Made by a program: the position numbers and the translations under genes
Source of the DNA: Paracyclopina nana
Taxonomy: Eukaryota > Arthropoda > Copepoda > Cyclopoida > Cyclopettidae
Direction: 5' to 3'
NCBI GenBank assembly: GCA_019096065.1
Contig: JAGUCH010000007.1
Location: 146,501 to 210,500, forward strand
Length of the DNA stretch: 64,000 nucleotides
In this document: positions 25,416-50,734 of the stretch, piece after piece
Position numbering within the stretch: the first letter of the stretch is position 1
How the letters are laid out: each line of letters opens with the position of its first letter
The notes under the pieces: model-generated
What the model was told of the DNA's origin: nothing
Databases searched by the model: none
The model's input: only the letters and a program-made list of their open reading frames with translations

Positions 25416-25422
25416 TAAATGG
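25416..25422. repeat. Target-site duplication, left copy
   Basis: TAAATGG here is identical to 48601-48607 just outside the other LTR. Confidence 0.85.
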
Positions 25423-26344
25423 TGTGCGACGGTCACACCCTCTGAAGCCTAGGATGGTTAGCATCGGCTTCATGGTCGCGGTACCGTTCGCAGCCTCCGG
25501 GTGCTGGCCGGATGTCTACCCGCCTTGGACCCAAAGCCGCAGCCTCGGTGCTCCAACTCCGGCGAGATACATCACATGGCAAGCTTCAGTGCTGTAGACC
25601 TGTGATTGGGCCTCCTACCCACGTCCTCAACGGCCTCAACAGCCTCAGACGAGGATGCATAACTGCCCAGGAAACCTCTATACAAGTTATGGTCGAACAA
25701 AGTCAAACAAGGTTGTCTTATTCACTCAGCTTTTAACACCACACAAATTAATGGCAGCAAATACAAAGAAATAAGTACTGCAGTAAATATTCTTGTGGCC
25801 ATCTTCTTCATGCCTCAGCACACTTTGGAGAACTTTGGTGGGACAATAGCAGGGCAGAGCTCACTCAATGGGCCATGTGCACTTGGTCCATGTCTTGTTT
25901 CTCTGAAGTCCCCCATCGAACTCCCCGAGTCTTCTCCTTCTTCTCCACTTGATGCATCGCAGCAAGTTCCATCAGCTTCCATCTGCTTCTCTCCGTTATC
26001 ATGCAGCTGCAGGTCCTCTCTATGTGGCAGCTAGCAACTCCTCCACACAATAGCTAGCAACTTCTCCACTCAAGGTCAGGTGAATTGCCATAGGTGAGGC
26101 TCAATGCATAGGTAGTAGCAGCAGCAGCAGCAACAATCAGAGAGTTGGAGGAGATGAAAAGGTGTTTTTAAGAAAGGAGGTTTTGTGATTTTGAGGTGGT
26201 GATGTAGCGGTGAATGGGCAACCTTCCGGACTTCTGGCGGCTCCACGGGCTCCACGGTTTCCACAGGTTCCACTGGAGGGGTCCAATCAAGTCCTATTCT
26301 GGTCGTAACGTGCACCAGAGACATGATGTACTTATTGCCCATCA
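25423..26344 (-). repeat. 3' LTR (left copy)
   Basis: 922 bp, TG...CA ends; I saw no difference from 47679-48600. On the minus strand it starts TGATGGGCAATAAG, directly after the polypurine tract. It includes a short AGC/CAG run near 26111. Small open frames inside are shared with the other LTR and not called. Confidence 0.95.
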
Positions 26345-26447: not shown

Positions 26448-28334
26448 TTATACTAACGTCGCGCCTCCCAGGCCACCCATTCGCACAGTAAGGCGCTGAT
26501 TTTGATCAGCATCTTTCTTGCGATCTCCTCTATTGTAACGAAGCCGTGAGCGGGACGTATTAGGTCTCACATAGCCTCCATCATCATAACATCGGCTGCA
26601 TACTCGCCGCCTTTTCCAAATCAATATGCCCATACACGTGAATCCTAGTGCTGCAGACAATAGGCTCACCGTCAGGATTATTTCCCAATTATTGAATAAA
26701 CCTCCAAGTTCATCTTCAGGGAATTTTGTAAAGAACTTCACCATATCACTTTCCCAAGGAGAGTCCTCGTATCCAGTACTTTGAGTTCCAAGGGAAACCT
26801 TACAATTGCTAAGGATCTGATAGGATCCTGGTTCCAATACCATCGAGTTCTTGAAGTCATTTAAACAAGTCCTATTAATCATTGCACTTGAGACCAAATT
26901 TAAGAACCCTTTATAATTAGCACATCCCACATCAGTGAGCGTGTTAGTTTTAAGTGGCTCTAATTCACAGGCGTCAAAAGGGTCACCCAGAGCTAGCCCT
27001 AAAAGTACTTTAGCACAGTGTTGGCCCCCTTCTGTCAAGTCAAAGTCCTTGTTTTCACACACAGTTAAATTATGGTCATGAACGAAGCAATCACTATAGA
27101 TGGGTATTTCTCGAGACACAAACACTAGATCATTTCGGCGGGTCAAATACCTATCATGCAGTAAGAATCCGTTTTTGCTTCGTGACACAATATGATATGT
27201 GACCTCAGGGGTAGGGTCCATTTCTTTATACTTAACTATTCCCTGAGTGACAAAGTCTCCACTCTGCTCAGTGTTCGCCAAAGGTTCATAAACATTAGTA
27301 ATAGTGGCCGCATTTCTGTCACTATTATGCGCCAGAGTTGGTATGCTGAACCGTGTGCCTGCCTGTCCAAAATTTCTGGCAAATTGCACAACTGTGTCAG
27401 CATATGACAATACTTGCTGCAGATCATTTGGTATTAATCCAGACTTCAAAAAGACCTTGCTAAAACCTTTCAATAGTCGAAAGGCCAAAGAAACTTTCGG
27501 TGGTACTCTCAGTGGAGTGGTATTTGCTATCATGCCATCGGTGAATTTTGTCGATTTACCTGATTCTGCTAGGGCCATCACGGCGTTGTAGGCTTTTTCA
27601 AGGAAGCTTTTCCTCCCAGACAATTCAGATTTGACAAAGTCCTTATGGGTGATGACAAAGTCATTTTGGACACATATTGTTGCCTTCCCATCACTGTGTG
27701 GTGCATGGGCTTTAACTGACGTCATGGTCCTCGGCCCTTGTCCCACAGTGAAATACCCCGTGATACACGGGTAACCTGCAATTATCTCATCATCCGGTTT
27801 TTTCTCATACCCCACTTGAGGAAATGTGGTTTTCCCATCCAAGGACATAGGTACCTCATTGACGATCCGAAACTTTACACATAAAGTTACCTTAGTGGCA
27901 AGAGGGCTTTCCTTTGCCGTATAACGTAATAGTTCTAGAAAAACGTCCATGTCTTCATAAGTTTTAGGGGCAAATGGTACAAACCCTTGACGTTTGGAAC
28001 AAGCTTTGTCGATGGTGTTAGGGGTACTCTCTTCGCCAACTGCCAACATATTCCCAATATGGACCAAGTCCTCCTTGTCCTTAACTTCTTTTACCACGGT
28101 GTCAATATTATTCAGGACGCCAATTGTTGATTGCAAAAGGCCACTGTAATCCTTCGTATCTAACACCATAGCCTTTTTCACCATTCTAGGATGATGGACC
28201 ACTCTAACTGGAACTAGGGCATGTCCGGAATGGCAAAGTGCATCATCCAGTACGAACTGAGTATTTGGGTAGTTGGACAGGCCCCAAGTGCCAGACCCCA
28301 AAAGGGTGAGTGTGAAGACCAATTCAAACGACAT
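26448..28334 (-). CDS. Envelope-like type I membrane glycoprotein of the LTR element
   Basis: One uninterrupted frame of 628 residues, the last sense gene before the 3' LTR, where retroviral env genes sit. Residues 1-18 are a hydrophobic signal peptide. A large ectodomain follows with about a dozen cysteines and several N-x-S/T sites (NTT, NLT, NRT). A single hydrophobic anchor lies near residues 555-578 (ILTVSLLSAALGFTCMGILI), then a basic cytoplasmic tail. I recognise no specific fusion-protein family and see no strong furin site. The name rests on position and topology, not homology. The frame shows no breaks. It may allow cell-to-cell spread, but that is inference. Confidence 0.7.
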   Translation of the reverse strand: MSFELVFTLTLLGSGTWGLSNYPNTQFVLDDALCHSGHALVPVRVVHHPRMVKKAMVLDTKDYSGLLQSTIGVLNNIDTVVKEVKDKEDLVHIGNMLAVGEESTPNTIDKACSKRQGFVPFAPKTYEDMDVFLELLRYTAKESPLATKVTLCVKFRIVNEVPMSLDGKTTFPQVGYEKKPDDEIIAGYPCITGYFTVGQGPRTMTSVKAHAPHSDGKATICVQNDFVITHKDFVKSELSGRKSFLEKAYNAVMALAESGKSTKFTDGMIANTTPLRVPPKVSLAFRLLKGFSKVFLKSGLIPNDLQQVLSYADTVVQFARNFGQAGTRFSIPTLAHNSDRNAATITNVYEPLANTEQSGDFVTQGIVKYKEMDPTPEVTYHIVSRSKNGFLLHDRYLTRRNDLVFVSREIPIYSDCFVHDHNLTVCENKDFDLTEGGQHCAKVLLGLALGDPFDACELEPLKTNTLTDVGCANYKGFLNLVSSAMINRTCLNDFKNSMVLEPGSYQILSNCKVSLGTQSTGYEDSPWESDMVKFFTKFPEDELGGLFNNWEIILTVSLLSAALGFTCMGILIWKRRRVCSRCYDDGGYVRPNTSRSRLRYNRGDRKKDADQNQRLTVRMGGLGGATLV

Positions 28335-28573: not shown

Positions 28574-28714
28574 TTAGAACTGCCCGACAAATCCATTAAT
28601 CGCCTCAGTGAATACCTTGATGTCGCTGGGGGTCATTTCCTCCATTTTAGCCTGAAGGAGATAGTTCACACGCTCCTTATTCTTATCGACTTTGGAGCGC
28701 TTAGCGTGCAACAT
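28574..28714 (-). CDS. Small overlapping frame at the end of the uncharacterised element gene
   Basis: A 46-codon frame from ATG at 28714 to TAA at 28576-28574, overlapping the last 49 bp of the 427-residue gene in another frame. The peptide is charged and helix-like (KNKERVNYLLQAKMEEMTPS), more protein-like than the last 16 residues of the longer frame. It may be reached by frameshift, by splicing, or be a separate small protein. Confidence 0.4.
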   Translation of the reverse strand: MLHAKRSKVDKNKERVNYLLQAKMEEMTPSDIKVFTEAINGFVGQF

Positions 28715-29949
28715 GTCTGGTCCATTCGTTCCTGCGCCAAAGGGCGCCCACGCGCTACATCGGCGTACAGTCTAGGTCCTCGCCTTGGTTTTTGTTGCCA
28801 AGACTTCTCCACAAACGCGGCTAGTTTTTGGGGCCTGGCCCCGGCTGTGTACCTCACGCATTGCGGATATGTTCCAATGGCTCGATCGACAAACTGGGCT
28901 ACCATGGTAGGCAGGAGTGCGGTCATATCGATCTTCACGTCCAATTTTCGTGGTGCTTGGGCCACGCCATTGTTAAGGCAGGACGGCGGTCCCACATACA
29001 GTTGCAAGTAAGGCGACGTCAAATCATGGAACATCCGCGGATCCCAAAATGATGAGTCCAATGTTGGCATGATCTGAATGCAGCCTCGCTTGGTATAATG
29101 TTTGGAGACTACTACAGGGAGTTGAGCTCCACCCTGTCCACGGATTCCATGAACATAATACCCAACAGCTGTTGGGCTCTGGACGGCAGACCAACTCCTG
29201 ACATTGGCCAACTTATGGACATTCTCGTCATATTCCATCTTGTCAGGCAAATTGTAGACTGGTAGATTGTCTAGCATCGGAAATATAACAAGAAAATCGG
29301 GAATCTCCCCTCCTTTACTCACTGGCTCGATAATCAATTCAATGCAGTCAAAGTTTTTCACCTTCAATGGCCTACGAGGCTCGGTCCGTTCATAGGGTTC
29401 TCCATTTATCCTAATCGTTAGGTCAAAAGGCACCTCCTTTCCAACAGTCATGACCTCTTTCGTAGCTATCTTCAACAGGCTTGCATCATAATGCTGCTGT
29501 ATAGTAGCTCTGGTCCGGCTCGCCTCCCTCGCATAGGCCTGTAGACCCTCCATGTGGGGAGGCCTGATCAAATCCTCAAATGGCAATGGGTACCCCAAAC
29601 TGGAGGATACCCTTTCCAATGGGACCTCGAGGGGTTCCTCTTGGTCCTGGTGCCTAGTCGTCTGATTCTGGGCTTGGTTCTCAATATTGACAGCAGGCAT
29701 GTTGCGATCCATAACTGGCTCATCATCCTTTAGGAGCTCACTAACCTCTTGTTCGTTGAACTTTCCAGTCTTATCAGTCTCCATCATAGAGACCAATGCA
29801 GATTCTCCTTCCATGGATTCGGTGATCAGAGACATCCTTAGATTATCGAGGCTATTCAAGCTATCGCTCATTTCCAGACTGTTGCTGTAAGGCCGTAACC
29901 TGCCCTTTTTATACGCATCTTTACAGGTATGCCCCACACTCTCGGGCAT
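28666..29949 (-). CDS. Uncharacterised element protein upstream of the envelope-like gene
   Basis: 427 codons on the sense strand of the element. The first 140 residues are Ser/Glu/Gln-rich and look disordered. Residues about 150-380 look folded, with beta-type segments such as PFDLTIRINGEPYERTEP, CIELIIEPVSKGGEIPDFLV and KLDVKIDMTALLPTMV. The end is basic (QQKPRRGPRLYADVARGR). No transmembrane segment. I recognise no family; a structural or nucleic-acid-binding protein is possible but not shown. A second frame overlaps its end and continues another 90 bp, so the true C terminus may differ. The gap to the envelope-like gene is about 240 bp. Confidence 0.65.
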   Translation of the reverse strand: MPESVGHTCKDAYKKGRLRPYSNSLEMSDSLNSLDNLRMSLITESMEGESALVSMMETDKTGKFNEQEVSELLKDDEPVMDRNMPAVNIENQAQNQTTRHQDQEEPLEVPLERVSSSLGYPLPFEDLIRPPHMEGLQAYAREASRTRATIQQHYDASLLKIATKEVMTVGKEVPFDLTIRINGEPYERTEPRRPLKVKNFDCIELIIEPVSKGGEIPDFLVIFPMLDNLPVYNLPDKMEYDENVHKLANVRSWSAVQSPTAVGYYVHGIRGQGGAQLPVVVSKHYTKRGCIQIMPTLDSSFWDPRMFHDLTSPYLQLYVGPPSCLNNGVAQAPRKLDVKIDMTALLPTMVAQFVDRAIGTYPQCVRYTAGARPQKLAAFVEKSWQQKPRRGPRLYADVARGRPLAQERMDQTCCTLSAPKSIRIRSV

Positions 29950-30235
29950 TTAAATGCGTGGGTTGTCCCTTTTAAAAAACCCAAGGTCATTTTTTGTCTA
30001 GGTAAAAAAGAACAGGGTAACAGGACTTATACCACTTCCTTATAAGATGGGCGCGTGCGCGCACGCTCCTCGTCGGGTTGCACGGACATTTTTGACTTCC
30101 TAGGTCGTGAAACGTAGCGAGGGTGCAACAGGCAGTTGCAACTCTCAGCTTTCACTTAATGTTGATCATTCTCCCATCGGACTTCGTCCAAGCTGGTCAC
30201 TTTTCTAGAGATATTCCAATCCCAATCAAATCGCG
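29950..30235. promoter_or_regulatory. Divergent region between sense and antisense gene sets of the element
   Basis: 286 bp between the start codons of the minus-strand gene at 29949 and the plus-strand gene at 30236. It contains a GC-rich near-palindrome (GGGCGCGTGCGCGCACGC) at about 30048-30065. Its position makes a bidirectional promoter plausible; no clear TATA box seen on the plus strand. Confidence 0.4.
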
Positions 30236-31287
30236 ATGGTCATTTTAGCCTGGGTTTCTCTAACTCCAGAGGGCAGCTCTACAGAGGCTCCCACTGAGGT
30301 TCCAATCCAGCCATCAACGGTGGATCCTGCGCTAGTGGATTCTCAAACCACGGGCCCAGTAGGTCCTACTGTTGCTATTCCTGAGAGTGGCATTTCTGAA
30401 GCCGAGGGTGGACCTGGATTTGGTCCAGCTCCTGTCGACCCCTTTGAAGTGGAGGTGTTTGACCCCCGAGATTTAATGCCAGCGGTACCAAATGGTTATC
30501 GTCCCATTGCCCCTCAGAGGGACTGGATCGAGGAAATTTTCAATTACCACCGATACGGTGTAATGGGATGGATCGGTCTTGGAGCGTCCATTGGGATGGC
30601 TTTGGTAAGTTCAACCTTATAGCTGGTTTTGCAACTATGGCCAAACTTTTATTTACCACCTTCTTTCTTACAGATTTTGCTTGGCATGTTGGTGTACTTC
30701 TGCGTGTGGACGTCACGATGGTGCCGAAGGTTCGTGGCCACGTTTCGAGCTATTCGTACGGAGTCATCGACTGCAAGTGGAGCCATGCAAATGCTTCCAA
30801 CAAAGGCCCCATCAGAGCATGCAGCGGTATTTCACTGCTGTACCCCAGAGGTCCGAGCTTTGCCACCAGCCCCGATTATGCGTGACCCTGATGTCCATTC
30901 GCTCCAAATGGCAATGGCTGCCATGGACCCCTATGGAACACTACGCCGGAATCCCAGCATCATGTCCGGGCTGGCCCACATCTATGACGTCCCTAATCCC
31001 AAGGGCTGGGTAAGGACCTATCAATTTATGAACTGTAAACAGGTTGCTCATGTACTCTTTTTCATGCACCTTTTCAGGTACCTGTTACTGAAGGGTGCGG
31101 ACCGCGGACTTTGAAGAGACGATCTCGCCGGGCTCGAGCCCGAGATAACCGTCGCTTGGATTCGGCAGCGGAGTCCATTCTGGACAAGGACGAGATCACT
31201 GAGGCTGAACCTCTCTCAATCGCAGATGAGGACCAGGATTCCGCCGGGTCAAAGGCTTCCCAGGACGTGAACAGCGATGCCAACTAA
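30236..31287 (+). CDS. Antisense spliced gene 1 of the element: single-pass membrane protein
   Basis: Exons 30236-30604, 30674-31009 and 31078-31287 join in phase 0 with perfect GT-AG sites (69- and 68-bp introns), giving 304 residues. Residues 1-110 are rich in Pro, Thr, Glu and Val. One transmembrane helix at about 113-135 is built across the first splice junction (WIGLGASIGMAL | ILLGMLVYFCVW). The rest is a tail of about 170 residues with an arginine-rich stretch (LKRRSRRARARDNRR) and an acidic end. AATAAA at 31588-31593. The gene runs opposite to the retroelement's transcript, which explains how introns survive copying through RNA. No family recognised. An accessory or envelope-associated role is conceivable but unproven. 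Confidence 0.75.
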
Positions 31288-31768
31288 GGATCGCCACAGA
31301 CTTAAAGACGAAGAACGCTTTCTGTTCGCATGTATTTAAGCGCGTTTTCTGTAACTTTTCGCACTTTGTACTTTCATCGCGTTGCAACTTTCTCACTTGA
31401 TAACTCGCACTTTTCCGCAGTCTTCGCGGACTTTTCCACTTTTTCAAGGACTCGCAGACTTTTCGAGGCCTCGTAGACTTTTTTAAAGCCGGCTTTTTGC
31501 ATTTGCACTCGTCTTGTTTTTATTTTGATCTCAAAGCTTCCAATATACTCGAGTATATACTATAGTACTTGTATTCTATATATATGTAATAAAGAATTCG
31601 AATTCAAGTGGGGTAGCAGGTATTAGCGAAGCCGTTACCTTCATCTGACAGCGCTCCCAGACTTTACGTAGAAGCGCGTAATAAAAAGAGGCTTTTTTAC
31701 ACGAAATTTGGCCGATTTCAGACCGGATTTTTCTGGTAGCGCGCCTTGTTTACTAAAAAGTCCAAAAC

Positions 31769-32304
31769 ATGGCGGGCTTCCTACACGGCTTGTTCGTAAG
31801 TTTTTATTTCGATTAAAATCCGGTGAATCCTTTCGTTAAACTGTATCTTTTTCATTGGGAATGCAGAATCCTTCTACAACAACGGTGGCGCCAGCCACCG
31901 AGGCTCCCGTAGGGGCGCCCCCCGCGGCCGAGTCCGCGGCGGGGTGGCCCCAGCCACCTGCGGCCCCGCCCGCAGCCCCCATGGGCCACGAGGAGTGCCC
32001 TCCCTGCCCCGTTCAGGGCTTCGTAAGTGCATTATTCGTTATCTATTTGGTCAAAGCTCGACTTTTTCTCGTATTACAGGCCGAAGAGATCCTCTAGGGC
32101 GTGGCCCTGAACGTGGCAGGGGCCGCGGCCTATTATTTGGTGGCCCTCCCTGCCCTCGCCTGGGTCCACCGGGCAAAACCCCGGGGCCTCTACCGGCTAG
32201 TCAGCCGGGTTTGGGCCGAGCCGGAGGACCTCCCCCGGGTTTCGGCCTGGGTCCTCCGCTGCATGGGCGTGGCGGAGGCGGACCCCCTCGAAGGAGTCGT
32301 CTAG
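31769..32304 (+). CDS. Antisense spliced gene 2 of the element: small GC-rich membrane protein
   Basis: Exons 31769-31795, 31867-32022 and 32098-32304 give about 129 residues. The start MAGFLHGLF is followed by a Pro/Ala-rich segment and a CPPCP motif, then a hydrophobic helix (GVALNVAGAAAYYLVALPAL) and a basic tail. I place the second acceptor at CTCTAG before 32098. An alternative acceptor at 32080 would meet that same TAG as a stop. A GTAAGT donor overlaps the stop codon at 32304; splicing there would still end the protein at the same residue. AATAAA at 32468-32473. Exons 2-3 and the following exon-like block are strikingly GC-rich compared with the rest of the element. Layout (Pro-rich segment, one helix, basic tail) echoes antisense gene 1. 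Confidence 0.6.
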
Positions 32305-32473
32305 TAAGTCTAACTTATTCACTTAAGCCATCACAGCTTCACTATATTCATCTTGTCTTTTACAGAACTCGTCGTGTTCCCGGTAGGCCACCGCACCGGC
32401 CAGGGCTGGCCCCAACGTGGCCCAAGGCCAGCCCGCCCCCCTCGCCTGGAGGCCTCCCTTACGGGACAATAAA

Positions 32474-34117
32474 GTCCACGTTCATTGTACTTTTGTGTCT
32501 ACTGTGTTTACCGCAACTCATTTCGCGTTTACCTCAGCAGATAGCTCAGCCTTATGAAGCTCAGCACCTTTCTAGTCAAGTTCAGCAGTTCATTATCATA
32601 GCCAAGCACATTTCGAGTCCAATTTTTTACATTTCATGGCCAAAAGGACCGTAGACCATATCTCAGGTGTCAAGAATTGCATTTTAATTGCATAATTAAT
32701 CATTAGCGAATCATTAGCGGCCCAAATCCACAGATTCGGGCCTGTAAATAAGCTAGCATTCCAGCTCGGCCTTGACGGCCTTGACACTGCAAACGATGCT
32801 TCAATGTTCAAGAAAAGCGTTCACTATAGCCCTGCATTCCAGCTCGGGCTTGATGCAGCACCATATTTGAGTGTCTGCGATTACTACCGGCCAAGCGTTG
32901 GTGCTTATGGGCTACCAATGCCAATTTGGCATCCTTTTTTCCTTGGGCATTCCGGCTCGGCCTTGAGTGCGGCGAAGGAAACGTAGTCCCTACAGGACTG
33001 GAAAACCGGCCGTATGTCATTGCACATAGCAAAAGCAAGCTCAAGCACTAGGCAATGGCACAATATTCTTTTCCATATCAGGCTAGAAGACGTGTATTTT
33101 TCATTTTCTCACATGTCAGTCTACAATGTGTGCTGACCTAGCTTGTTTTGCTAGTGCTGTGTTTAGCGTAAATTGAATTCTCCACCAAAAAAGAGGGGAT
33201 TCATGTGGCAACTGCAAGATAGCCACATTTCAGCACTTCTTTTATTTAACAATATGCCTAATCTTTGTGCACTTTGAACCTTCTCTTCTGTTAGTCCATC
33301 TGGCGATCATTAGCGGTATCATTATAACATTAGTCATTTTCATTCTCTTGACTTTTATGCAACGTTTGATTTTATTCCTTGTACCCGCATAATAAATCCC
33401 GGAATTTGGGTCACCACTCGAGCCAAGTATGGCCATTTTTGAGTTTAGATAAGTTCAAAAACCTTCCCAGGTGAATTGTAGGTGCACCGGCGGTTCCAAT
33501 CTTCATTGTTCGTTTTAGCCTTGGGCAAAACGTTTTTAGTTTGTGGTTAGGCGCGTGGTGGCGCCACCATTCTACATCTCCAAGCGAAGCCGCTCAAACT
33601 GGATTTTTCTAGTGTGGGAGCGTCTCTGGATTTTTGTTCCATAACAACTTTTTGCCCCCCTTGGAGTCGGGTATCTGTTCAACAGAAACTGGCTCAGCGT
33701 CTTTGCGCCATGCAACTCACATTTCAGTCTATCTTGCTCAAATGTTTTTTGTCTAGCCATTTTGAACAGACTCATCGATTACGTTTTTATCTGTTATCAC
33801 TGAATTGCATAGCTATTATAGCTCTGCATTCCAGCTCGGTCTTGATGCGTGCATCAAGTTCGGGTGCTCATAACCGAAATTAATTTAAAAGATTGAGGTT
33901 ATCAGCACCGATCTTTTCAGCTAATTTCGGTTAGCACTAATAATAAGATCCATAAAGCAAATTTTGCACCTTTATGTGCTAGTGTTCAGATTTATAGTTT
34001 TTGTGGCACTTTGCCATTTCCAGTTTTATCTAGAAATTTTGTTTACAATACTTTCTCAGAGCGCGAGTGCGCTCAAAATTTGTGAAATTTTTGGGGCGCA
34101 GGCTGCATTTCCTGCGG
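32474..34117. other. Element spacer with repeated GCATTCCAGCTCGG motif and hairpins
   Basis: No convincing gene. GCATTCC(A/G)GCTCGG followed by (C/G/T)CTTGA recurs at about 32757, 32834, 32947 and 33826; the second and fourth copies match over about 30 bp. A perfect 8-bp inverted repeat with a 2-bp centre (CTTGATGC GT GCATCAAG) is at 33841-33858, and a longer interrupted hairpin at 33864-33937 pairs GTGCT...AACCGAAATTA with TAATTTCGGTTAGCAC. Confidence 0.6.
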
Positions 34118-34193
34118 CTACGTATATATACTCCCCCCTCCACAATTTTCTGCATTTTGTGGGAACTGTAGTGAGCAGTCACACAAAATTCAG
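34118..34193 (+). promoter_or_regulatory. Likely promoter and non-coding first exon of antisense gene 3
   Basis: TATATATA at about 34124, then about 60 bp later a strong donor TTCAG|GTAAGTATG at 34193/34194, just ahead of the coding exon at 34271. This suggests an untranslated first exon starting near 34150. Confidence 0.45.
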
Positions 34194-34270
34194 GTAAGTA
34201 TGTTTTCGAATCTTTAACTATAAAAGATTTAGCAGCTAGGCTAATTTTATTCAATTTTTTTATTTGAACT

Positions 34271-34591
34271 ATGGCGCCCGTGGGCACCCTCCATGATATC
34301 AAAAACCTAAATCGTGCCACTGTAAGGAAGGAAGGTCGGCACATACTAAATTTTTAGAATTACGATTTCCAAAACAAGTTCAGTTGTCACACATAGACTG
34401 TTGTGGCAATCGAACTTAAAATGGTATTTTATGGGGAAACACTTGTTCAACCCCCAAAATACCCCAGTGGTATCCAAAGCCGAAGAATTCACCAGCATAT
34501 AGGATTTTTGTTGTCTTTATTAGCCACAAGGGAGCGGCCTATTCCAATAGAGAGTGGGTCCCCACATATTGTTGAGGCAAGAAGGCCATAG
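34271..34591 (+). CDS. Antisense spliced gene 3 of the element: small protein, unknown
   Basis: Exons 34271-34321 and 34397-34591 (75-bp GT-AG intron, phase 0) give 81 residues beginning MAPVGTLHDIKNLNRAT and ending HIVEARRP. The second exon has balanced, globular-looking composition (IELKMVFYGETLVQPPKYPS). No signal peptide, TM helix or known motif. A nearer acceptor after TTTTTAG at 34357 would give a 36-bp intron and an early stop, so I prefer the one above. It is on the strand opposite to gag-pol. Confidence 0.5.
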
Positions 34592-38637: not shown

Positions 38638-41600
38638 CTACTGCTTGTATGGCGATAAAGTTCGGTAATGACATAACTCCTTAATTTTATAACGATCAAC
38701 AAGGCGTTGGAGGGCCTTATTAGTCGTTAGCTGGGCACCATTATCTGCAAGTAATGTTTTTGGCACCCCAAACAAAGAAATTACTTCTTCCATAGCATTC
38801 GCTACCTGCTTATATTTAGCATCCAATAGTGGTTTAGCAATTATCATCTTAGAATAAACATCGACAAATACTAACAGGTCTTTTGCGGAAGACCCTTTGA
38901 CTAAAGTGTCATCGAACTTGGCCAAATCAATCATTACCAATTCCCATGGCTGAGTCGGGATGCGGAAACGCCCCTTCCCAACAAACCTAGTATTAGCTTG
39001 GCGGTATAAAGCACAATGCATGCACGCACCAATAATAATACGACTGATTCTGGCTGAGTAAGTTGAATACATAGATTGAGTAAAAAGGGTATTGGTCTTT
39101 TTACTCCCCAAATGGTTATGTAACAGATGAATACATGCCATAAGGTACACACAGTTAGGCATACTCATATACACTTTTGTATTAGTAGCAACACTGAAGG
39201 GTAACTTTACATTCTTGCGTATAACCAACAAGGCACCATCAAGAACTCGGTATTTTACCGCAACATCTAATGGTACTTTCTCAGGAGGCGAAAGCATAAT
39301 TAAATTTATTATCTTTTGTGTTTCTTCACAATTTTGTTGCAACTTAATGAGTAGGTTGCGTGTAATTCCTGGTAAATGTGGCGATATTTGCCGTTTAACA
39401 GTTACTGTATCTACTCTTAAGTTATTTTCTATATGATTTACTGGTGAGTCAAAATCAGCTTCCCCATGAAACGAATGAGATAGTTTTGAAAGTATCTCGT
39501 CCTCAAGAAATTCATCATCATCATGTTTTGCTTGAAGTAAGGTTGACGTGTCGTCGTGCACAAATGGCGGCTTCGTGCCGATCATGTCAACCCATTTGTC
39601 ATTTAGGCAATGCAACCTTTTCTGGAGTAGAGTCTTACTCATAGTTCCAGAATTCACAAGTGTATCATACACGTGTGTAAGTAATTCCTGGGTTGTAAGC
39701 ACCTTATCTTTGATCGCATCGGGTAGAGGGTATTTATTTGAATAAATATCCTTAGTAATCTGTCCCGCAATAGAGTAAGGCGCATAAAATACAGTTTCAC
39801 CTTCTGGTGTTTGATGGTATTTATTTAATAATACATCAACTACTTCTACCTCTGTGCGAGGTACAGCCCTTAATTTCCATGCTACAGGCAGGGAATAAAT
39901 ACGAGCTGCTAATCTATGAGTAAATGCATCTTTACCAGTAAACGAACTAGCAAGTACGCTAGCGATAGATAAGCAATCAGTAACTATTACCAACCGCTCA
40001 TAAGCGAATAGTATGCTTTTAAAATGGTTTATCATTGTTAAAACTCCTAATGCTTCACGTTGAAATGAGTGGTATGAGAGGCAAACCGATAGAGGAAAGC
40101 GTGCGCTGTGTGCACCAACACACACAGCTTTCCCATCCTCATTCACCTCCATTAATAAGGCTGAAGTACTTATTACCCCAGAATCAACCACTAAATAACC
40201 TTCTTTAAAACGTGGTAGTGCCAACGACATACCCGTTTTAATCTCGTCTATTACTTTATAGAAACATTTTTCCTGGAAAGCAGTGAAAGTGAATTTTCCT
40301 GCTTTTCCTTGCGCTGTTTGTAACACATCTAGCAATGGTGCCGTGTAAGTAGCCATATTGGGGCAGTATTGGCTTAACCAGTTTGTCATCCCAATAAACT
40401 TTTGCAGCTGTTTCTTTGTTGTGGGCATAGGGAAATCATCAAATGCAGACCTGAATTTATCGGGCATTCGCATAGTCATAATCCCATTTTCATCAATAGA
40501 TATTAGGTGCCCTAAGACTGTAGCTTCTTTAACACCTAATTGCGTCTTTTTAATTTGTAATAGGGCATTTAAGTCCTTGAGGCTTTGAAACAACTTCCTC
40601 AAATCACCTAAATGTCGTATGTAATCGTCCAATGTAGCAGGCCTAGGCTTGCCAGGGTTCTTACAGGCCACGACCAAATCGTCTACATATACACATGTAA
40701 AGGGCAATATCTCAGGGTTAAGGGCCTGTTGGAGGAGCTCTGCGAACATTCTCGGAGCAATGGCGATCCCTTGTAGGCATGACTTACTTTTCAAAAAGAC
40801 TGATCTATATATACTGCGAGGGGACGTTACTGCGAAGCAGCACATATCAGCACTATCGGAGTCCACAGGTAAGTTATCGTATCCGGATGTCACATCAAAA
40901 GATGACATCAAACATGAATTAGATAACATCCCTAGCAAGGTAGGGATAGGTGGCACTATGTGCTCTGAAGTCGTAAATATCAGATTTTTATTAAAAGATG
41001 TTAAGTCAACCAATAGCCGAGGCTTGCGTTGCTTCATGGGCAGCTTTTCATCATTTGGCCTTGAAGTCAAGAAACAAGGGCAAGCCGAGTACCTATTAAG
41101 TGACTTATCCACAATCTCAATTAATCCAGATGACAGCATTAATGCTATTTTACGGTCAACCTGCGTAGTTTCATACTCCGACATGTTAAATACTTTTGGC
41201 ACCAATGGTTTATCATCCTTTAACTGGAACTTCATGGGTTCGACATTCCATAGCCTATATGATCTAGGATCCTCCGAGAATATAGTCTTATATTCTATTA
41301 AGAGGTCCCTAAAGTCTTCTCTGACCTCATCCGGAATGTGTTCTAGATCCATGTTCAAGATCGTTTCTGGTTTCAATGGAAATGTGTAACCTGCTACTCC
41401 ATTTAAAACACGGAGAGGGTCAAATTCACTAGGGAATTTCAGAAGGAGATTATAAACCTCATCATATAGTTTTTGGTTATTTTTCTCATCCTTAGAGAGC
41501 TCCAGGCTAGCTGATACAAGGTCTAGTTCAGAAGGACTTTTCAGGACTGTTTGCCTGGTACTGGTATCAACAATAGGACCTTCATAAATAGTAGTGAAGC

Positions 41601-43860
41601 TTTTAAGTGGCACTTTGATGCCCATGTTCTTTGCCAAGCAAGGCTTACATGAGCAACCATGCGGTTCAAGTACAAATGGTATAAATTTACCAAATTTTGT
41701 CTTTATATCCTCTTTGGTAAGGTCATCAGGGTACATTTGTAACCCAGATAACACTAGCAATGCAGCAGTGGTTGCCATACAAAGTGGGTCACCTACATGC
41801 ACGTCACCATCCATAAGTGTTCTAATCCACACATCGTCAGCTACATTTTGGTATCGTAATTGACCAATTATTATGTACATAAGTGTGGTTAGGTAGCCAA
41901 CATTCTCTGCATGTTCGCTAGGGACATGGAATATTAACTCAACATTGTTGGACAACTTAAACATGATACCATGAGCTCCAAGAACGTTTAGTTCAAAATA
42001 CTTATCTAGTTCATTTCTTTGATAAGCAAGTGGGTAATTCTCATACTCATGTATCATCATAGTTATTATGACCCTATCCATCCCAGTGAGGTAGGATTCA
42101 ATAGGACACAAGGCAATGGTCATACATGGTGGGCAAATATACTTATATTTTAGCCATACTACTTTAAGTTTATCCACCATCATATTCATCTTTATTACAA
42201 TGCGCTTTTGTTCGCCAGACAAAAGTTTATGTCCTGGGACAATAACAGCCCACGGTAATTCATCCCATTTTTCTCGTTTCATAAATTTGCTAATTATCAC
42301 ATCAGTTATCTCTTCGTAACCGTCACTTTGGTTAGCTGAGATAAATACGTAATTTCCTTTCCTACTAATCATAGGCTTGTGGCTTCCCCTTAATGGCTCA
42401 TAGGCATTGAAAAAATGCATATCAGTAAAGGAAAGTCCATTTATATCAGTAAACTGCACAATTACGTGCGAATCTAAATAATTGCAGTAACATGACTCCA
42501 TTTCATGCTCCAGGGCCTTTAAACTAATGTTAGCCACATGGGCTGCAACCGTACTCTTAAATTTCTGTTTCTTGACAATCCTGGCTCGCCCAATCACTGC
42601 ATGTGCATTTAAGTAGATGGGATCCTCAGTATTGTTCCCAATATTTACTGGGAAAGTACCTTTACGAGTGACAGCAGTAAGTGCCCCCTCAGAGGTCACT
42701 CCGCGGTACTCGTTACTAGGCATAAAGTTTAAGTACTTATCCACCAATCCGGAATAGACATTTTTCTGGTGATGTGTACGACCAAGGTCGTCATCTTCGT
42801 CAGAGTCAGAATCTATTTGAATGTCATTACTGATGACAGGTAAATCATGAGGTAAACTAGCCATGGTGGTCACTTCTTCCCCAGGGAGTAGGGTGATCCC
42901 TTCATTTATTGCCACTGGGTAGAAGGCCTCTTTTGATAGTAATAGTGGAATTTTCTTATGCTTAGATTTTCCAGGGAAATCCATAAAGTGCTTTCCATCT
43001 TTACTAGTCATCCGGACATTATTGTCCACTAATAACGAGTTTCCTATCATTAATAGTGTATCGCAATCAGATACAAGGAAAACAGCCTGTCTGATTAAAA
43101 CACGATTCCCAAATGCAACTTGGATAGAGACAGCTTCATTCCCTGGGAATTCTTCCCCATTAAAGTTCTTAATTACATAATTAGTTTCGACCCGAGGTAG
43201 AGTGTAACCAATTTTGTCTTCGATCAGTTTTACAAGAGTGCGTGATATTATCTGCACCATTGCTCCACTGTCAAATAAAGCATGCAAACGTATTTTTCCA
43301 GTTATTTCTACTGGTATAAAATACCTTTCACAAACATTATGTAGTTTTAATGAGTATATACTCAGTACGTCATCTTCAAGTTCCGGATTCGGTAAAGGTT
43401 CAAAATGTGTTACTGGCTCTGCTTCATTAGCATTTACTGAGGCCAGATGTGTAACGATACCATCATTACTACAAGTTTTTTGCTCATCACTCGTGCTACC
43501 TTTTACAAAGTAGTACCATAAAGCTATTATTGCTCCACTACAGATTACTGTAATTGGCCAATAATCCCAACCAAATAAGCAATATTGACATATTGTTATT
43601 GCAAACAGTATTATGCCAATCTCAATTACAGTCATAGTATGCTGATGGACAAACCGACTTTTTCTACCCCTTATTGCAAGGACCAGAGCCTTTTTGTCCT
43701 CACTTCCACGAGTCATAATTTCGGCATTTTTCACAGATTGCTCCTTTAAATAATCAAAGTAAGCTCGTCCTACTTCTTTGTTACATTCTCCCCTCATAAA
43801 TGAAGGCAAGATGTAACTATCTTTATCATTCTTATTGGGAGTTTTTGTACTTGGTCCCAT
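38638..43860 (-). CDS. Pol polyprotein of the element, ending at an amber codon inside integrase
   Basis: 1740 residues. Two adjacent hydrophobic helices lie at about 77-95 and 101-118, unusual for Pol. An aspartic protease follows with LFDSGA (Asp near 197). The region from about 300 to 880 is unassigned. Reverse transcriptase has FDVTSGYD near 988 and YVDD at 1058-1061, and the LGHLIS connection follows. RNase H starts about VVDSG with later E and D. The integrase zinc region (HLLHNHLG ... CMHC) is near 1590-1620, and the first two catalytic aspartates are near 1650 and 1706. TAG at 38640-38638 comes before the third acidic residue, which is encoded just after the stop. The start ATG overlaps the gag stop as TAATG, suggesting translation by re-initiation. 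Otherwise intact. Confidence 0.88.
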   Translation of the reverse strand: MGPSTKTPNKNDKDSYILPSFMRGECNKEVGRAYFDYLKEQSVKNAEIMTRGSEDKKALVLAIRGRKSRFVHQHTMTVIEIGIILFAITICQYCLFGWDYWPITVICSGAIIALWYYFVKGSTSDEQKTCSNDGIVTHLASVNANEAEPVTHFEPLPNPELEDDVLSIYSLKLHNVCERYFIPVEITGKIRLHALFDSGAMVQIISRTLVKLIEDKIGYTLPRVETNYVIKNFNGEEFPGNEAVSIQVAFGNRVLIRQAVFLVSDCDTLLMIGNSLLVDNNVRMTSKDGKHFMDFPGKSKHKKIPLLLSKEAFYPVAINEGITLLPGEEVTTMASLPHDLPVISNDIQIDSDSDEDDDLGRTHHQKNVYSGLVDKYLNFMPSNEYRGVTSEGALTAVTRKGTFPVNIGNNTEDPIYLNAHAVIGRARIVKKQKFKSTVAAHVANISLKALEHEMESCYCNYLDSHVIVQFTDINGLSFTDMHFFNAYEPLRGSHKPMISRKGNYVFISANQSDGYEEITDVIISKFMKREKWDELPWAVIVPGHKLLSGEQKRIVIKMNMMVDKLKVVWLKYKYICPPCMTIALCPIESYLTGMDRVIITMMIHEYENYPLAYQRNELDKYFELNVLGAHGIMFKLSNNVELIFHVPSEHAENVGYLTTLMYIIIGQLRYQNVADDVWIRTLMDGDVHVGDPLCMATTAALLVLSGLQMYPDDLTKEDIKTKFGKFIPFVLEPHGCSCKPCLAKNMGIKVPLKSFTTIYEGPIVDTSTRQTVLKSPSELDLVSASLELSKDEKNNQKLYDEVYNLLLKFPSEFDPLRVLNGVAGYTFPLKPETILNMDLEHIPDEVREDFRDLLIEYKTIFSEDPRSYRLWNVEPMKFQLKDDKPLVPKVFNMSEYETTQVDRKIALMLSSGLIEIVDKSLNRYSACPCFLTSRPNDEKLPMKQRKPRLLVDLTSFNKNLIFTTSEHIVPPIPTLLGMLSNSCLMSSFDVTSGYDNLPVDSDSADMCCFAVTSPRSIYRSVFLKSKSCLQGIAIAPRMFAELLQQALNPEILPFTCVYVDDLVVACKNPGKPRPATLDDYIRHLGDLRKLFQSLKDLNALLQIKKTQLGVKEATVLGHLISIDENGIMTMRMPDKFRSAFDDFPMPTTKKQLQKFIGMTNWLSQYCPNMATYTAPLLDVLQTAQGKAGKFTFTAFQEKCFYKVIDEIKTGMSLALPRFKEGYLVVDSGVISTSALLMEVNEDGKAVCVGAHSARFPLSVCLSYHSFQREALGVLTMINHFKSILFAYERLVIVTDCLSIASVLASSFTGKDAFTHRLAARIYSLPVAWKLRAVPRTEVEVVDVLLNKYHQTPEGETVFYAPYSIAGQITKDIYSNKYPLPDAIKDKVLTTQELLTHVYDTLVNSGTMSKTLLQKRLHCLNDKWVDMIGTKPPFVHDDTSTLLQAKHDDDEFLEDEILSKLSHSFHGEADFDSPVNHIENNLRVDTVTVKRQISPHLPGITRNLLIKLQQNCEETQKIINLIMLSPPEKVPLDVAVKYRVLDGALLVIRKNVKLPFSVATNTKVYMSMPNCVYLMACIHLLHNHLGSKKTNTLFTQSMYSTYSARISRIIIGACMHCALYRQANTRFVGKGRFRIPTQPWELVMIDLAKFDDTLVKGSSAKDLLVFVDVYSKMIIAKPLLDAKYKQVANAMEEVISLFGVPKTLLADNGAQLTTNKALQRLVDRYKIKELCHYRTLSPYKQ

Positions 43861-46424
43861 TATTGTTTACGAGCAGGTCGTGTCTTCCAACACTGTTCTC
43901 CCCTAAACTCAAGGTGCAATCCTTTACACAACGGGCACAATGTGCCATCGTTTCTAATTGAGGTCAAATTCGTGTTTGGGTAATTTGTACACTGTGTAGC
44001 GTAATGCATTTGGTTGCAGAACAAGCACCCATTAGTCTGAAGAGGGTTTCCTTCAGGCAACTTAGATGTATCTATGTTAAAAGTTTTTCCCAACCTATTT
44101 ATTTTCTCGGATGGTGATTCAGCTTTCATCATAGCTACTTCAACAGCTTGCCTACTCAACTCAAAATTTGCTCGAGCCAACTCGCTTTGTAGCTCATTTA
44201 TTATTTTAGCACTTCGTTGGCTACGGCCAGAGGCTGCTGACATAGTGCTAGCACTGTCTAACACCTCTTCTTCAGTAGCTTCAACCATAGCAATTCTAGG
44301 TTTGGCACGCATATTGGGTACCATTGGCAGCCTCTCCTCTTTATGAGCCCTATCCAGGTCCCTTGGCACATAGGTACCTAGGTCACTGCCAATCAAGTTC
44401 ATCATGATATTGTAGGCGTGCAAACTCCTAGCAGGTATATTCGCTCTCAGCAGATAGTCATTGTATTTATTTACTAATGACTGGTAATTCTGAGGCCAAT
44501 GACGTCCTAGGAGTGCAAAACCATCAGAGATGGCTTCAGAGACTGCATGAGCATCTCCGCCATCTCCAATGGTTGTGCTATGTATCTTCATTCGCAGTCG
44601 AAGAATTGCCTTCAGTGTGGCAGTGAAGCACTCAGTAGGCCTCCGGATCATCTCCTGAATGAGGAAATATGGATCCTCTTTACGCACAAACTGCGTGTAG
44701 TTAAAGATATCTTGCCATAGCAATTCCATACCATCTTTTCCTTCTCCAGCCATCCCCTTAAAATACTCACTAGTATTCTGGGATGAAGCCTCACACATGG
44801 CTGTTAACAAAGCTGCATGAGACCAATGCTGTCTGCCAGCCTCGTTTGCCATATAGTCCAGAAAATTTATTATATTCTCAGCAGTTAATGAGGAACTATG
44901 TAAATCAAACTTTTTAGTATATTTGTGCCTAATCTCCTTCATTGACTGTGAGCTTGCATACTTAACATGGCCATTCGTAGGTGCAGCGATGTAACCTCTC
45001 ATGGTGGTCGGATCATAAATGCTCCTAGAAGTGTCAGCGGATACTCCAGCGGCCACACTTATTTCAGGGGTCTTCAAGTAGCCCTCTGCCAATATCTGCT
45101 TTTGGAGAGAAGTAAACTCGTCCCTCGTGCTAAGTACACTAAAGAGCTTCTGCATCTCAATCAATTTCTTTCCTGAGGATAAGTTAGGGTCAACCATCTG
45201 AAGGATTACTCGTCTGGCTGATTCCACATCCTTAATCTCATCAGTGTTAATTAACTTAATCCTCTCTGAAATTGGAGCAGACTCATCATAGATGACGTCA
45301 GTTTCCGGCACCATTCTTTCCTTCGTCGCAGCATCTACTATGCTTAAGGTTCTTTCTAAATTCTTACTGAAGATAGACTCTACTTTTGCCCCAACCATGT
45401 GCTTAGCTGTGATTTGTGCAGAGGCAATAATTTTATTTGCCGTGCTTGCATCATGCATTTTCGTGTAGTAAGCTTTTACCGTGTTTAATTCCTGAATATT
45501 CAAATGGCCTCCTGACAACATCTTTTGTACCATCCTATGTACAATTTCCATTGGAGGAAGCGTGACAGAATTAGTCAAGTTGTGCAAATCACGCGGATTC
45601 ATTTTAGTCGAAGTTAGGACTGACTTATTATGGACATTCAGGTCAGCTCCAGTAGTGAACTCGTGATGGTTAGTCCCAGGTGGACTTGCTATCGAGGACA
45701 TATCTGGAACAGCATTACTCGTCTCATTGTTTGGAAAATGTACACTCTGGCCTGAAGTTTTCTGTGGCTTCAGGTTAAGCGGCTCATTTAGGAAATAATC
45801 GATTTGTAGGCCATAAAGCCTTGCTACAATAGAAAATCCATCTCCAAATGCCCGTATCTTTAGCCAATTCCTGGATATCAATGTCGCAACCATTTCATGC
45901 GTCCCTGACATTGCGTAGGTCATGGAGCTTCCATCAACTTCTTGGATACGCTGCAGATCTTTCTTTTCCTCAATACGAGTTAGGAACTCATCCAGACCAA
46001 AACAAATGCATAATAAAGCACATGTCGTGCTTGTCAATGAATTAGGGTCAAGTGCATCAATGTATTTAACCACATTTACAACCTGGCCTACTGGATCTTT
46101 AAGAGGCATAGTACTAATGATTGCCGTAATATGATCATCCAACGGTCTAATTGGCTCCCTGGGAACAATTACTATTCGAGTCCTATCCCATACAGCTGCT
46201 ATTTGTGCTGGGGTTACCGTAACAAACTCTAGTGCTTCAGGGTAAGCAACGTGTGGCAGAAATCTTTGCAAGACAGTCCTGCTGGTCCCATTTGGGTGGC
46301 ATTGGGATAAGTACCCTTGAAAAGTGTCCTCACTAATCCCAAGATGGTGCAACAATCGCTCCTTGACTTTCGTAACTTCCTCAGCCAGAGTAGGTCCAGC
46401 GATCCTAGAATCCTGATTTGCCAT
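43860..46424 (-). CDS. Gag-like structural polyprotein of the element
   Basis: 854 residues, first gene after the leader. The body is mostly helical with no TM segment and is about twice the usual Gag length. The C terminus has two zinc-knuckle-like clusters: CLFCNQMHYATQC (C-x2-C-x3-H-x4-C) and CPLCKGLHLEFRGEQC (C-x2-C-x3-H-x7-C). These would bind the genomic RNA during particle assembly. A coiled-coil-like stretch precedes them (RSAKIINELQSELARANFEL). The TAA stop shares its last base with the ATG of pol. No breaks seen. Confidence 0.82.
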   Translation of the reverse strand: MANQDSRIAGPTLAEEVTKVKERLLHHLGISEDTFQGYLSQCHPNGTSRTVLQRFLPHVAYPEALEFVTVTPAQIAAVWDRTRIVIVPREPIRPLDDHITAIISTMPLKDPVGQVVNVVKYIDALDPNSLTSTTCALLCICFGLDEFLTRIEEKKDLQRIQEVDGSSMTYAMSGTHEMVATLISRNWLKIRAFGDGFSIVARLYGLQIDYFLNEPLNLKPQKTSGQSVHFPNNETSNAVPDMSSIASPPGTNHHEFTTGADLNVHNKSVLTSTKMNPRDLHNLTNSVTLPPMEIVHRMVQKMLSGGHLNIQELNTVKAYYTKMHDASTANKIIASAQITAKHMVGAKVESIFSKNLERTLSIVDAATKERMVPETDVIYDESAPISERIKLINTDEIKDVESARRVILQMVDPNLSSGKKLIEMQKLFSVLSTRDEFTSLQKQILAEGYLKTPEISVAAGVSADTSRSIYDPTTMRGYIAAPTNGHVKYASSQSMKEIRHKYTKKFDLHSSSLTAENIINFLDYMANEAGRQHWSHAALLTAMCEASSQNTSEYFKGMAGEGKDGMELLWQDIFNYTQFVRKEDPYFLIQEMIRRPTECFTATLKAILRLRMKIHSTTIGDGGDAHAVSEAISDGFALLGRHWPQNYQSLVNKYNDYLLRANIPARSLHAYNIMMNLIGSDLGTYVPRDLDRAHKEERLPMVPNMRAKPRIAMVEATEEEVLDSASTMSAASGRSQRSAKIINELQSELARANFELSRQAVEVAMMKAESPSEKINRLGKTFNIDTSKLPEGNPLQTNGCLFCNQMHYATQCTNYPNTNLTSIRNDGTLCPLCKGLHLEFRGEQCWKTRPARKQ

Positions 46425-50595: not shown

Positions 50596-50734
50596 ATGTC
50601 CTTGTAAGAAATGGTCAAGGTTCTATCAAAGAGTGGTTAATGTTCCATTTGGAAGAGGTCAATGTCACATTAGCAAGTGGTCACTCTGTTTTGTCTTATT
50701 AACTACGCCACGTTTTCAGTCCAGACTGATTTTG

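What the first reader, a model, noticed from the sequence alone, without database searches (positions are those of the whole stretch)
30236..34591. Spliced, intron-containing genes carried antisense inside a retroelement
Three plus-strand genes have exact GT-AG introns in consistent phase (two 69/68-bp introns, two introns, and one 75-bp intron), and two have AATAAA signals. A retroelement's introns are lost when its RNA is copied unless the gene runs opposite to the genomic transcript. Antisense placement thus lets these genes keep introns through transposition. HTLV-1 HBZ is the known parallel of a spliced antisense retroviral gene, but a set of three or four would be new as far as I know.
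Basis: partly seen in the sequence, partly recalled or inferred. Interest (0 to 1): 0.93.

Follow-up and report, generated by a model that had tools for sequence, protein, structure and literature searches.

The report
Two intron-bearing antisense genes in retroelement
A very large virus-like jumping element in an animal genome carries two genes on its opposite strand, each cut by introns, whose readable form many copies have kept although introns are normally lost when such elements copy themselves through RNA.

Summary
The window holds a 23.2-kb, env-bearing, gypsy-like LTR element on the minus strand (25420-48600; identical LTRs). Between pol and the env-side genes, two plus-strand genes are real. 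Gene 1 (30236-31287, 3 exons, 304 aa) and gene 2 (31769-~32490, 4 exons, about 129 aa) each encode a predicted single-pass membrane protein and are followed by an AATAAA.

In 37 gene-1 and 33 gene-2 sequences every intron keeps GT-AG. Substitutions pile up at third codon positions in exons, not in introns, and within-family dN/dS is 0.09-0.35. Gene 2 recurs in related families down to 51% RT identity. It is antisense to RT in all 76 places that could be paired with an RT.

Antisense placement explains why introns and internal poly(A) signals survive copying through RNA. Gene 2 also holds a conserved UAG just after an acceptor, suggesting a tandem acceptor or programmed readthrough.

Antisense ORFs in plant LTR elements, HTLV-1 HBZ and HIV-1 ASP are precedents. 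A conserved pair of multi-intron antisense membrane-protein genes was not found in my searches. Transcription was not tested.

The parts
25420..26344 (-). 3' LTR of the element (925 bp, TG..CA on the plus strand)
   Evidence: Identical to the other LTR, 0 of 925 differences; 4-bp target duplication TAAA
47676..48600 (-). 5' LTR of the element
43860..46424 (-). gag-like ORF (854 aa) with a C-x2-C-x3-H-x4-C motif near its end
   Evidence: ORF; no Pfam match at its cut-off; motif seen by eye in the translation
38638..43860 (-). pol: protease, RT, RNase H, integrase (1740 aa open in this copy)
   Evidence: Pfam RVT_1 6.8e-13 above its cut-off; rve 3.8e-7, RNase H and Ty3-peptidase matches below theirs; other copies have longer open frames, up to 2669 aa
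35884..38568 (-). C-terminal part of pol (integrase C-terminus and long tail)
   Evidence: 35% identity to residues 1784-2198 of the single 2574-aa pol P0001
30236..30604 (+). antisense gene 1, exon 1 (Pro/Thr/Ser-rich N-terminal part, first half of the membrane helix)
30605..30673 (+). gene 1 intron 1, 69 bp, phase 0, inside the membrane-helix codons
   Evidence: GT-AG in 37 of 37 copies
30674..31009 (+). gene 1 exon 2
   Evidence: 56 copies in the genome, my count of the 62 rows
31010..31077 (+). gene 1 intron 2, 68 bp, phase 0
   Evidence: GT-AG in 37 of 37 copies
31078..31287 (+). gene 1 exon 3 (basic then acidic tail, stop TAA)
31588..31593 (+). AATAAA of gene 1
   Evidence: present in 28 of 28 sequences examined
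31769..31795 (+). antisense gene 2, exon A (9 codons)
   Evidence: codon positions 2/0/17; ATG in 33 of 33
31796..31866 (+). gene 2 intron A, 71 bp
   Evidence: GT-AG 33 of 33
31867..32022 (+). gene 2 exon B (Ala/Pro-rich)
   Evidence: codon positions 24/14/62
32023..32079 (+). gene 2 intron B to the proximal acceptor (57 bp); to the distal acceptor it would end at 32097 (75 bp)
   Evidence: both AGs and the UAG at 32095-32097 in 33 of 33
32060..32123 (+). near-invariant block over the end of intron B, the UAG and the start of exon C
   Evidence: 8 changes in 64 sites, against 0.58-0.82 per site in exon B, intron B and exon C as wholes
32080..32303 (+). gene 2 exon C (membrane helix, C-terminal domain); the stop codon is split by the next donor
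   Evidence: codon positions 38/29/104 from 32098 on; homologues in families 2 and 4
32304..32365 (+). gene 2 intron C, 62 bp; splicing recreates a stop (TA|A)
   Evidence: GTAAGT at the donor and AG in all 33; TAA in 32, TAG in 1
32366..32490 (+). gene 2 exon D, 3' UTR with AATAAA at 32468-32473; the 3' end is approximate
   Evidence: AATAAA in 33 of 33; codon positions 31/15/27, p 0.054
28666..29949 (-). sense ORF of 427 aa between the antisense genes and env
   Evidence: ORF, no Pfam match
26448..28334 (-). env-like ORF of 628 aa (N-terminal hydrophobic stretch, C-terminal membrane helix, both seen by eye)
   Evidence: ORF; 72 matches in the genome; no relative found in Pfam at its cut-offs, PDB or viral contigs

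Best explanation
The element is a giant env-bearing gypsy-like retroelement. It carries, between pol and the env side, an old accessory module of two complete genes on the strand opposite to its genomic RNA. SHOWN: both genes are multi-exon, with introns, reading frames and internal poly(A) signals conserved among copies; the module travels with the element; gene 2 recurs antisense in families with RT identity down to 51%; in the one copy read of each of families 2 and 4 a gene-1-like gene with an intron inside the membrane helix lies upstream. FOLLOWS from how LTR elements replicate: the genomic RNA holds these genes as their complement, so their splice and poly(A) signals are not read in it, the introns cannot be spliced out of it and it is not cut short; the same genes in sense orientation would lose introns and truncate the genome. 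INFERRED: each gene is transcribed from its own promoter in the integrated DNA and spliced by the host. The two products are single-pass membrane proteins that act in the host cell as retroviral accessory proteins, most likely at the membrane where Env and particles assemble. Gene 2 probably makes two products, a short form ending at the conserved UAG and a membrane form made by using the downstream AG or by reading through the UAG.
For: Splice sites invariant: 37 of 37 gene-1 copies, 33 of 33 gene-2 sequences. Third-position excess in all six coding exons (p 1.2e-6 to 2.2e-27) and not significant in introns, flanks or 3' UTR (p 0.054-0.97). dN/dS 0.09-0.29 in 15 gene-1 pairs and 0.10-0.35 in 10 gene-2 pairs. 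Gene 2 antisense to RT in 76 of 76 places that could be paired, 3 of 79 unpaired (positions). Same architecture in families 2 and 4, with the membrane-helix intron at the same place. UAG in 33 of 33 and in the family-2 and family-4 pieces; an open frame of exactly the exon-C length, so beginning right after that point, in 13 of 13 family-2 rows without an inner stop and 6 of 7 family-4 rows. AATAAA kept: gene 1 28 of 28, gene 2 33 of 33. Minus-strand ORFs across 30000-32500 are at most 83 aa.
Against: No RNA data could be consulted, so transcription, splicing and promoters are not shown. Only 24 of 37 gene-1 copies keep the whole frame (3 more stay open but lack the window's stop; 10 are broken) and 27 of 33 gene-2 sequences do (my counts), as expected for decaying copies. 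Between families 1 and 2 the first 60 codons of gene-2 exon C give dN 0.225 and dS 0.52, a ratio of 0.43, weaker than within the family. Family 3 (RT 66-69%, 7 matches) shows no gene-2 match, so the module is not universal; its DNA could not be read. Gene 1 has no sequence match outside family 1 except one weak hit (E 0.048); its link to the family-2 and family-4 genes rests on position, intron place and architecture. The membrane role is a prediction from hydropathy. No signal peptide was tested and no N-glycosylation motif lies before the helix. Copies are related and recombine, so the p values are indicative only.
Confidence: 0.85

Rival explanations
1. The plus-strand RNA itself is what matters: antisense transcripts regulate the element (dsRNA, small RNAs, interference) and the reading frames are incidental.
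For: Antisense non-coding transcripts are known in other elements (micropia, TART; cited in PMC7264820, passage seen). A conserved TATA-like box plus donor lies at 34120-34200.
Against: Codon-position bias and low dN/dS in the coding exons and not in the introns; in-frame indels. RNA function does not predict these. It could act in addition.
Confidence: 0.08
2. Recently captured host genes, or a nested mobile element, that happened to land antisense and ride along.
For: Genes with introns and own poly(A) signals look like cellular genes; LTR elements do capture ORFs between pol and env (PMC6431247, passage seen).
Against: Same order and orientation in three families down to 51% RT identity; of 79 gene-2 places in the own genome only 3 have no RT nearby; no relative of gene 1 at E 1e-3 among about 5.8 billion proteins. 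An ancient capture remains possible.
Confidence: 0.1
3. For gene 2 only: the UAG is a true end, so the product is a 66-residue peptide and exon C is not translated from this mRNA.
For: The proximal acceptor has the better pyrimidine tract (0.76 against 0.44) and the UAG is invariant.
Against: Exon C keeps strong codon-position bias in the same frame (38/29/104) and is recognisable as a protein across families, so it must be translated by some route.
Confidence: 0.05

Closest known systems
Antisense additional ORFs (aORF-3R) of plant gypsy-type elements: Grande gene23, RIRE2, Retand TRP28 (PMC7264820, PMC11963269; passages seen)
   Same: Antisense to gag-pol, between pol and the 3' LTR, in most copies and old; a promoter just upstream of gene23 is reported; function unknown.
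   Different: Here an animal genome, an env-bearing element, two tandem genes with 2 and 3 introns and own poly(A) signals, predicted membrane proteins. The passages seen describe antisense ORFs with in part nuclear or predicted DNA-binding products; the word intron was not found in either main text.
HTLV-1 HBZ and relatives in deltaretroviruses (PMC1459196, PMC8622228; passages seen)
   Same: Antisense, spliced, polyadenylated retroviral gene.
   Different: HBZ transcripts start in the 3' LTR and have an intron of 1.4 or 1.54 kb; here the genes lie about 4 kb from the LTR, each with its own AATAAA, introns of 57-71 bp (75 with the distal acceptor), and no Pfam domain.
HIV-1 antisense protein ASP (PMC3182985; passages seen)
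   Same: Antisense, predicted membrane protein with a proline-rich part.
   Different: ASP is antiparallel to env (PMC4335690, start of abstract) and has two predicted helices; here the genes have their own space, one helix each, and introns.
Giant gypsy-like elements: Burro (planarian), Ogre (plants) (PMC6431247; passages seen)
   Same: Size class: internal region here 21.3 kb, over the 20-kb line used in that review; extra coding capacity.
   Different: The word antisense was not found in that review, and the passages seen do not discuss genes on the opposite strand of LTR elements.

Membership tests
Ty3/gypsy-type LTR retroelement | Two LTRs, TG..CA, 4-6 bp target duplication | tested here: met
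   925-bp identical LTRs, TAAA duplication
Ty3/gypsy-type LTR retroelement | Domain order protease-RT-RNase H-integrase | tested here: met
   Pfam order along pol, with only RVT_1 above its curated cut-off; relative P0001 collinear
Ty3/gypsy-type LTR retroelement | RT placed with gypsy in a tree of reference RTs | not tested
Ty3/gypsy-type LTR retroelement | tRNA primer site after the 5' LTR | tested here: inconclusive
   A stretch beginning TGG three bases after the LTR resembles a tRNA 3' end (reading by eye); the host tRNA was not identified
[quoted passage not shown]
   56 copies of gene-1 exon 2; gene 2 antisense to RT in 76 of 76 paired places
Plant aORF-3R class | TRP28 or other known domain | tested here: not met
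   No Pfam match for gene 1 or for gene-2 exons B and C at E up to 1
HBZ-type antisense retroviral gene | Spliced antisense coding RNA | tested here: inconclusive
   Conserved splice sites and frames; no RNA data
HBZ-type antisense retroviral gene | Promoter in the 3' LTR | not testable with these tools
   The genes lie about 4 kb from the LTR with own poly(A) signals; transcription start unknown
HBZ-type antisense retroviral gene | bZIP domain | tested here: not met
HIV-1 ASP-type | Antisense frame overlapping env | tested here: not met
   env-like ORF 26448-28334, genes 30236-32490
HIV-1 ASP-type | Membrane protein | tested here: inconclusive
   One hydrophobic helix in each product (mean hydropathy 1.7-2.6); location not testable

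The most novel reading that the evidence does not exclude
A clade of animal retroelements has an ambisense genome plan: structural genes and env on one strand, and on the other an ancient, self-contained module of two host-style genes (own promoter, introns, poly(A)) that only antisense placement makes compatible with life as an RNA. Gene 1 exists as old, strongly different alleles that recombine into elements with near-identical pol, like a specificity determinant. Gene 2 is set by a conserved UAG/tandem-acceptor switch between a short peptide and a membrane protein.
Probability: 0.35. Interest if true: 0.88.

Novelty: new variant of a known kind. Interest (0 to 1): 0.78.

Why it matters
Retroelements are expected to lose introns, and internal poly(A) signals should cut their genomic RNA. 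This element shows a stable way round both limits, with comparative evidence of selection on the genes. It makes a question left open for plant elements testable: PMC7264820 asks for attention to antisense and spliced transcripts (passage seen). It offers many copies, one with identical LTRs, and old alleles, to test what antisense accessory genes do. It also suggests that plain ORF listing misses such genes: no single ORF or 6 shows either gene whole.

Tried and rejected
Gene 3 (34271-34591) and the 166-aa frame 35336-35836: no codon signal; rejected as coding genes.

Coding on the minus strand across genes 1 and 2: ORFs at most 83 aa; rejected.

Outside relatives: gene 1 among about 5.8 billion proteins, 1903 candidates, none at E 1e-3; viral contigs with pol, env, gene-2 exon C and gene-1 exon 2, none; Pfam for gene 1 and gene-2 exons B and C and PDB for gene-2 exon C, none; env against PDB only E 1.2. 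Gene 1 was not searched in PDB, gene 2 not in the protein collection. Rfam over 20000-50000 at gathering scores: none.

RNA structure near the UAG: folding z-scores -1.35 and -1.0 (window), -4.7 (family 2), -1.2 (family 4); not consistent, no claim made.

Host identity: RCC1/BTB gene 32-37% to named vertebrates and wasps (E up to 1e-60); only 'an animal' can be said.

Literature: 20 of 26 papers listed; 8 of 115 listed; none. No paper on spliced antisense gene pairs in an animal LTR element showed in these listings; most subscription papers and bioRxiv are not held.

Full report
WHAT IS THERE. The window lies in a 92-Mb genome of an unnamed animal (neighbouring genes include an ASC/ENaC-type channel, tectonic, RCC1/BTB and DNA ligase 3). 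On its minus strand is an LTR element at 25420-48600, 23.2 kb. Its LTRs are 925 bp, identical and TG..CA, with a TAAA target duplication. In sense order it has a gag-like ORF, pol with protease, RT, RNase H and integrase, a 6-kb stretch, a 427-aa ORF and a 628-aa env-like ORF. In this copy pol is open for 1740 aa and continues in a separate 894-aa ORF. Other copies have longer frames of up to 2669 aa, and a relative from an ENA contig is a single 2574-aa protein.

THE ANTISENSE GENES. In the 6-kb stretch, on the plus strand, gene 1 has exons 30236-30604, 30674-31009 and 31078-31287. Its 304-aa product has a Pro/Thr/Ser-rich N-terminal part, one strong hydrophobic helix and a charged tail; both introns are phase 0. 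Gene 2 has exons 31769-31795, 31867-32022, 32080 (or 32098)-32303 and 32366-~32490. Its longer product is about 129 aa: Ala/Pro-rich part, one helix, short C-terminal domain. Each gene is followed by AATAAA.

ARE THEY REAL GENES? I compared copies from the same genome. Exon 2 of gene 1 is found in 56 places (my count of the 62 rows). 37 copies were aligned (window plus 36), including eight chosen because they are the most divergent (52-84% identical exon by exon). All 37 have the ATG and GT-AG at both introns. Parsimony changes by codon position are 112/83/248, 99/44/211 and 53/68/154 in the three exons. Chi-square p values are 1.5e-23, 2.2e-27 and 8.5e-15 for exons and 0.085-0.97 for introns and flanks. 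Changes are not fully independent, and recombination disturbs the tree, so these p values are indicative. NG86 dN/dS is 0.09-0.29 in 15 pairs (the pairs with L067 are near saturation). 24 of 37 copies keep the full frame, 3 are open but lack the window's stop, 10 are broken (my count). For gene 2, 33 distinct sequences (from the window and 46 loci) all keep the ATG and the sites of all three introns. Codon positions are 2/0/17, 24/14/62 and 38/29/104 in exons A-C (p 1.2e-6, 4.4e-9, 1.7e-13). Intron A (12/19/25, p 0.077), intron B (p 0.76) and exon D (31/15/27, p 0.054) are not significant. dN/dS is 0.10-0.35 in 10 pairs; between families 1 and 2 exon C gives dN 0.225, dS 0.52. 27 of 33 keep the frame (my count).

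THE THIRD GENE FAILS. Over 20 copies (window and L041-L059, 89-100% identical over this stretch) the proposed gene at 34271-34591 has codon positions 21/18/23 (p 0.74). Its acceptor AG is lost in L045 and L048-L052, and stops lie in the first 70 codons of 18 of 20. The frame 35336-35836 has 30/31/33. A TATA-like box (CGTATATATACT) and a donor (TCAG|GTAAGTA) at 34120-34200 are nevertheless the same in 20 of 20 (three copies lack the base before the box, and a run of C after it varies in length) and remain unexplained.

OLDER THAN ONE FAMILY. RT searches show groups at about 94-100% (family 1; some decayed pieces lower), 85-88% (family 2), 66-69% (family 3) and 51% (family 4) identity to the window's RT (89 of 377 candidates scored, so counts are lower bounds). 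Gene-2 exon C is found in families 1, 2 and 4, at 60-74% in family 2 and 44-45% in family 4. Pairing each of 79 gene-2 places (one weak fragment of the 80 rows left out) with the nearest RT within 20 kb gives 56 family-1, 13 family-2 and 7 family-4 pairs, all on opposite strands; 3 have no RT near. Family 3 shows no gene-2 match. I read one piece each of families 2 and 4 (L069, L068). Both have a gene-1-like gene upstream whose intron splits the membrane helix at the same place (MGWIGLGASIGMAL|ILLGMLVYF; QDWIGLATTITVIL|VLLILTTCL; GIFGTISFGVWII|IILSALAW), and then gene 2 with the same exon plan (27/162/227 and 21/69/245 nt; introns 56-70 bp). Family 4's gene 1 differs in its other intron (234 bp, further 5'). 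These exon limits in families 2 and 4 are my reading of single copies, guided by family 1.

TWO CURIOUS DETAILS. (a) Gene 2 has a UAG in frame 15 nt after the proximal acceptor in families 1 and 2 (AEEIL*) and 9 nt after it in family 4 (GFD*). It is in 33 of 33 family-1 sequences. The open frame has exactly the exon-C length, so starts right after that point, in 13 of 13 family-2 rows without an inner stop (two more rows have one) and in 6 of 7 family-4 rows. The AG of the UAG would itself serve as an in-frame acceptor. The surrounding 64 nt barely vary (8 changes): at this acceptor 4, 2 and 2 changes in the last 20 intron, first 20 exon and next 24 nt, against 12-24, 14-23 and 5-36 at the other four acceptors. 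The proximal acceptor has the better pyrimidine tract. I cannot decide between a tandem acceptor and readthrough. (b) The last donor of gene 2 lies inside the stop codon (TA|GTAAGT), and splicing restores a stop in 33 of 33 (TAA 32, TAG 1); the family-2 and family-4 pieces do the same.

MOSAIC ELEMENTS. Copies L063-L066 carry gene-1 alleles only 66-77% identical to the window's over exons 1 and 2 (150-nt bins), yet gene 2 next to it is 86-100% identical, with the change between about 31136 and 31436, and RT in these four elements is 99-100% identical in protein, one of them over part of the query. So gene 1 is exchanged between lineages. This fits recombination by template switching; the cause is inferred.

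MECHANISM. An LTR element copies itself from an RNA read off the gag-pol strand. Introns and poly(A) signals on the other strand are not signals in that RNA. This is established biology, not a measurement made here. It explains why multi-exon genes with own AATAAA persist. That the genes are transcribed and spliced is inferred from selection on sites that matter only if they are. That the products act at membranes is inferred from one hydrophobic helix each; no homologue gives a function.

WHAT IS KNOWN. Plant Grande, RIRE2 and Retand carry antisense ORFs between pol and the 3' LTR, and a promoter upstream of gene23 of Grande is reported (PMC7264820; PMC11963269; passages only). The first of these asks that antisense and spliced transcripts be looked for. 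HBZ transcripts are spliced and start in the 3' LTR (PMC1459196; passages). ASP localises to the plasma membrane (PMC3182985; passages). Giant elements and capture between pol and env are reviewed in PMC6431247 (passages). In the listings (75 returned none; 53 and 57 listed only part of their papers) I saw no report of two multi-intron antisense genes in an animal LTR element; this is limited to that library. I therefore call it a new variant of a known kind.

Noticed in passing
   Followed up: partly
window 32095-32097 and 32060-32123: In-frame UAG conserved across families inside a near-invariant block of gene 2; tandem acceptor or readthrough.
   Followed up: partly
L060 and L062-L066 against window 30086-32786: Gene-1 alleles about 66-80% identical sit beside gene 2 at 86-100% and RT at 95-100% (some RT matches partial): mosaic elements. 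L061 has no RT match within 20 kb.
   Followed up: partly
window 32756, 32834, 32947, 33826: A 20-bp motif (GCATTCCAGCTCGGCCTTGA, 95-100%) occurs four times in the non-coding stretch of the element.
   Followed up: no
window 49272-55512: Two satellite arrays, 169-bp and about 242-bp units, with inverted matches between their ends, right beside the element.
   Followed up: no
window 62085-63755 (-): One 556-aa ORF with DNA ligase 3 C-terminal region, a Macro domain and a BRCT domain, an unusual combination as far as I recall.
   Followed up: no
P0001 (ENA contig of 25,934 bases): A 2574-aa pol, 38% identical over 1776 alignment columns to the window's; the contig is long enough to hold an antisense module but could not be read.
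   Followed up: no
G000 family-3 elements, e.g. C6:1149518: RT 66-69% identical but no gene-2 match, although the more distant family 4 has gene 2.
   Followed up: partly
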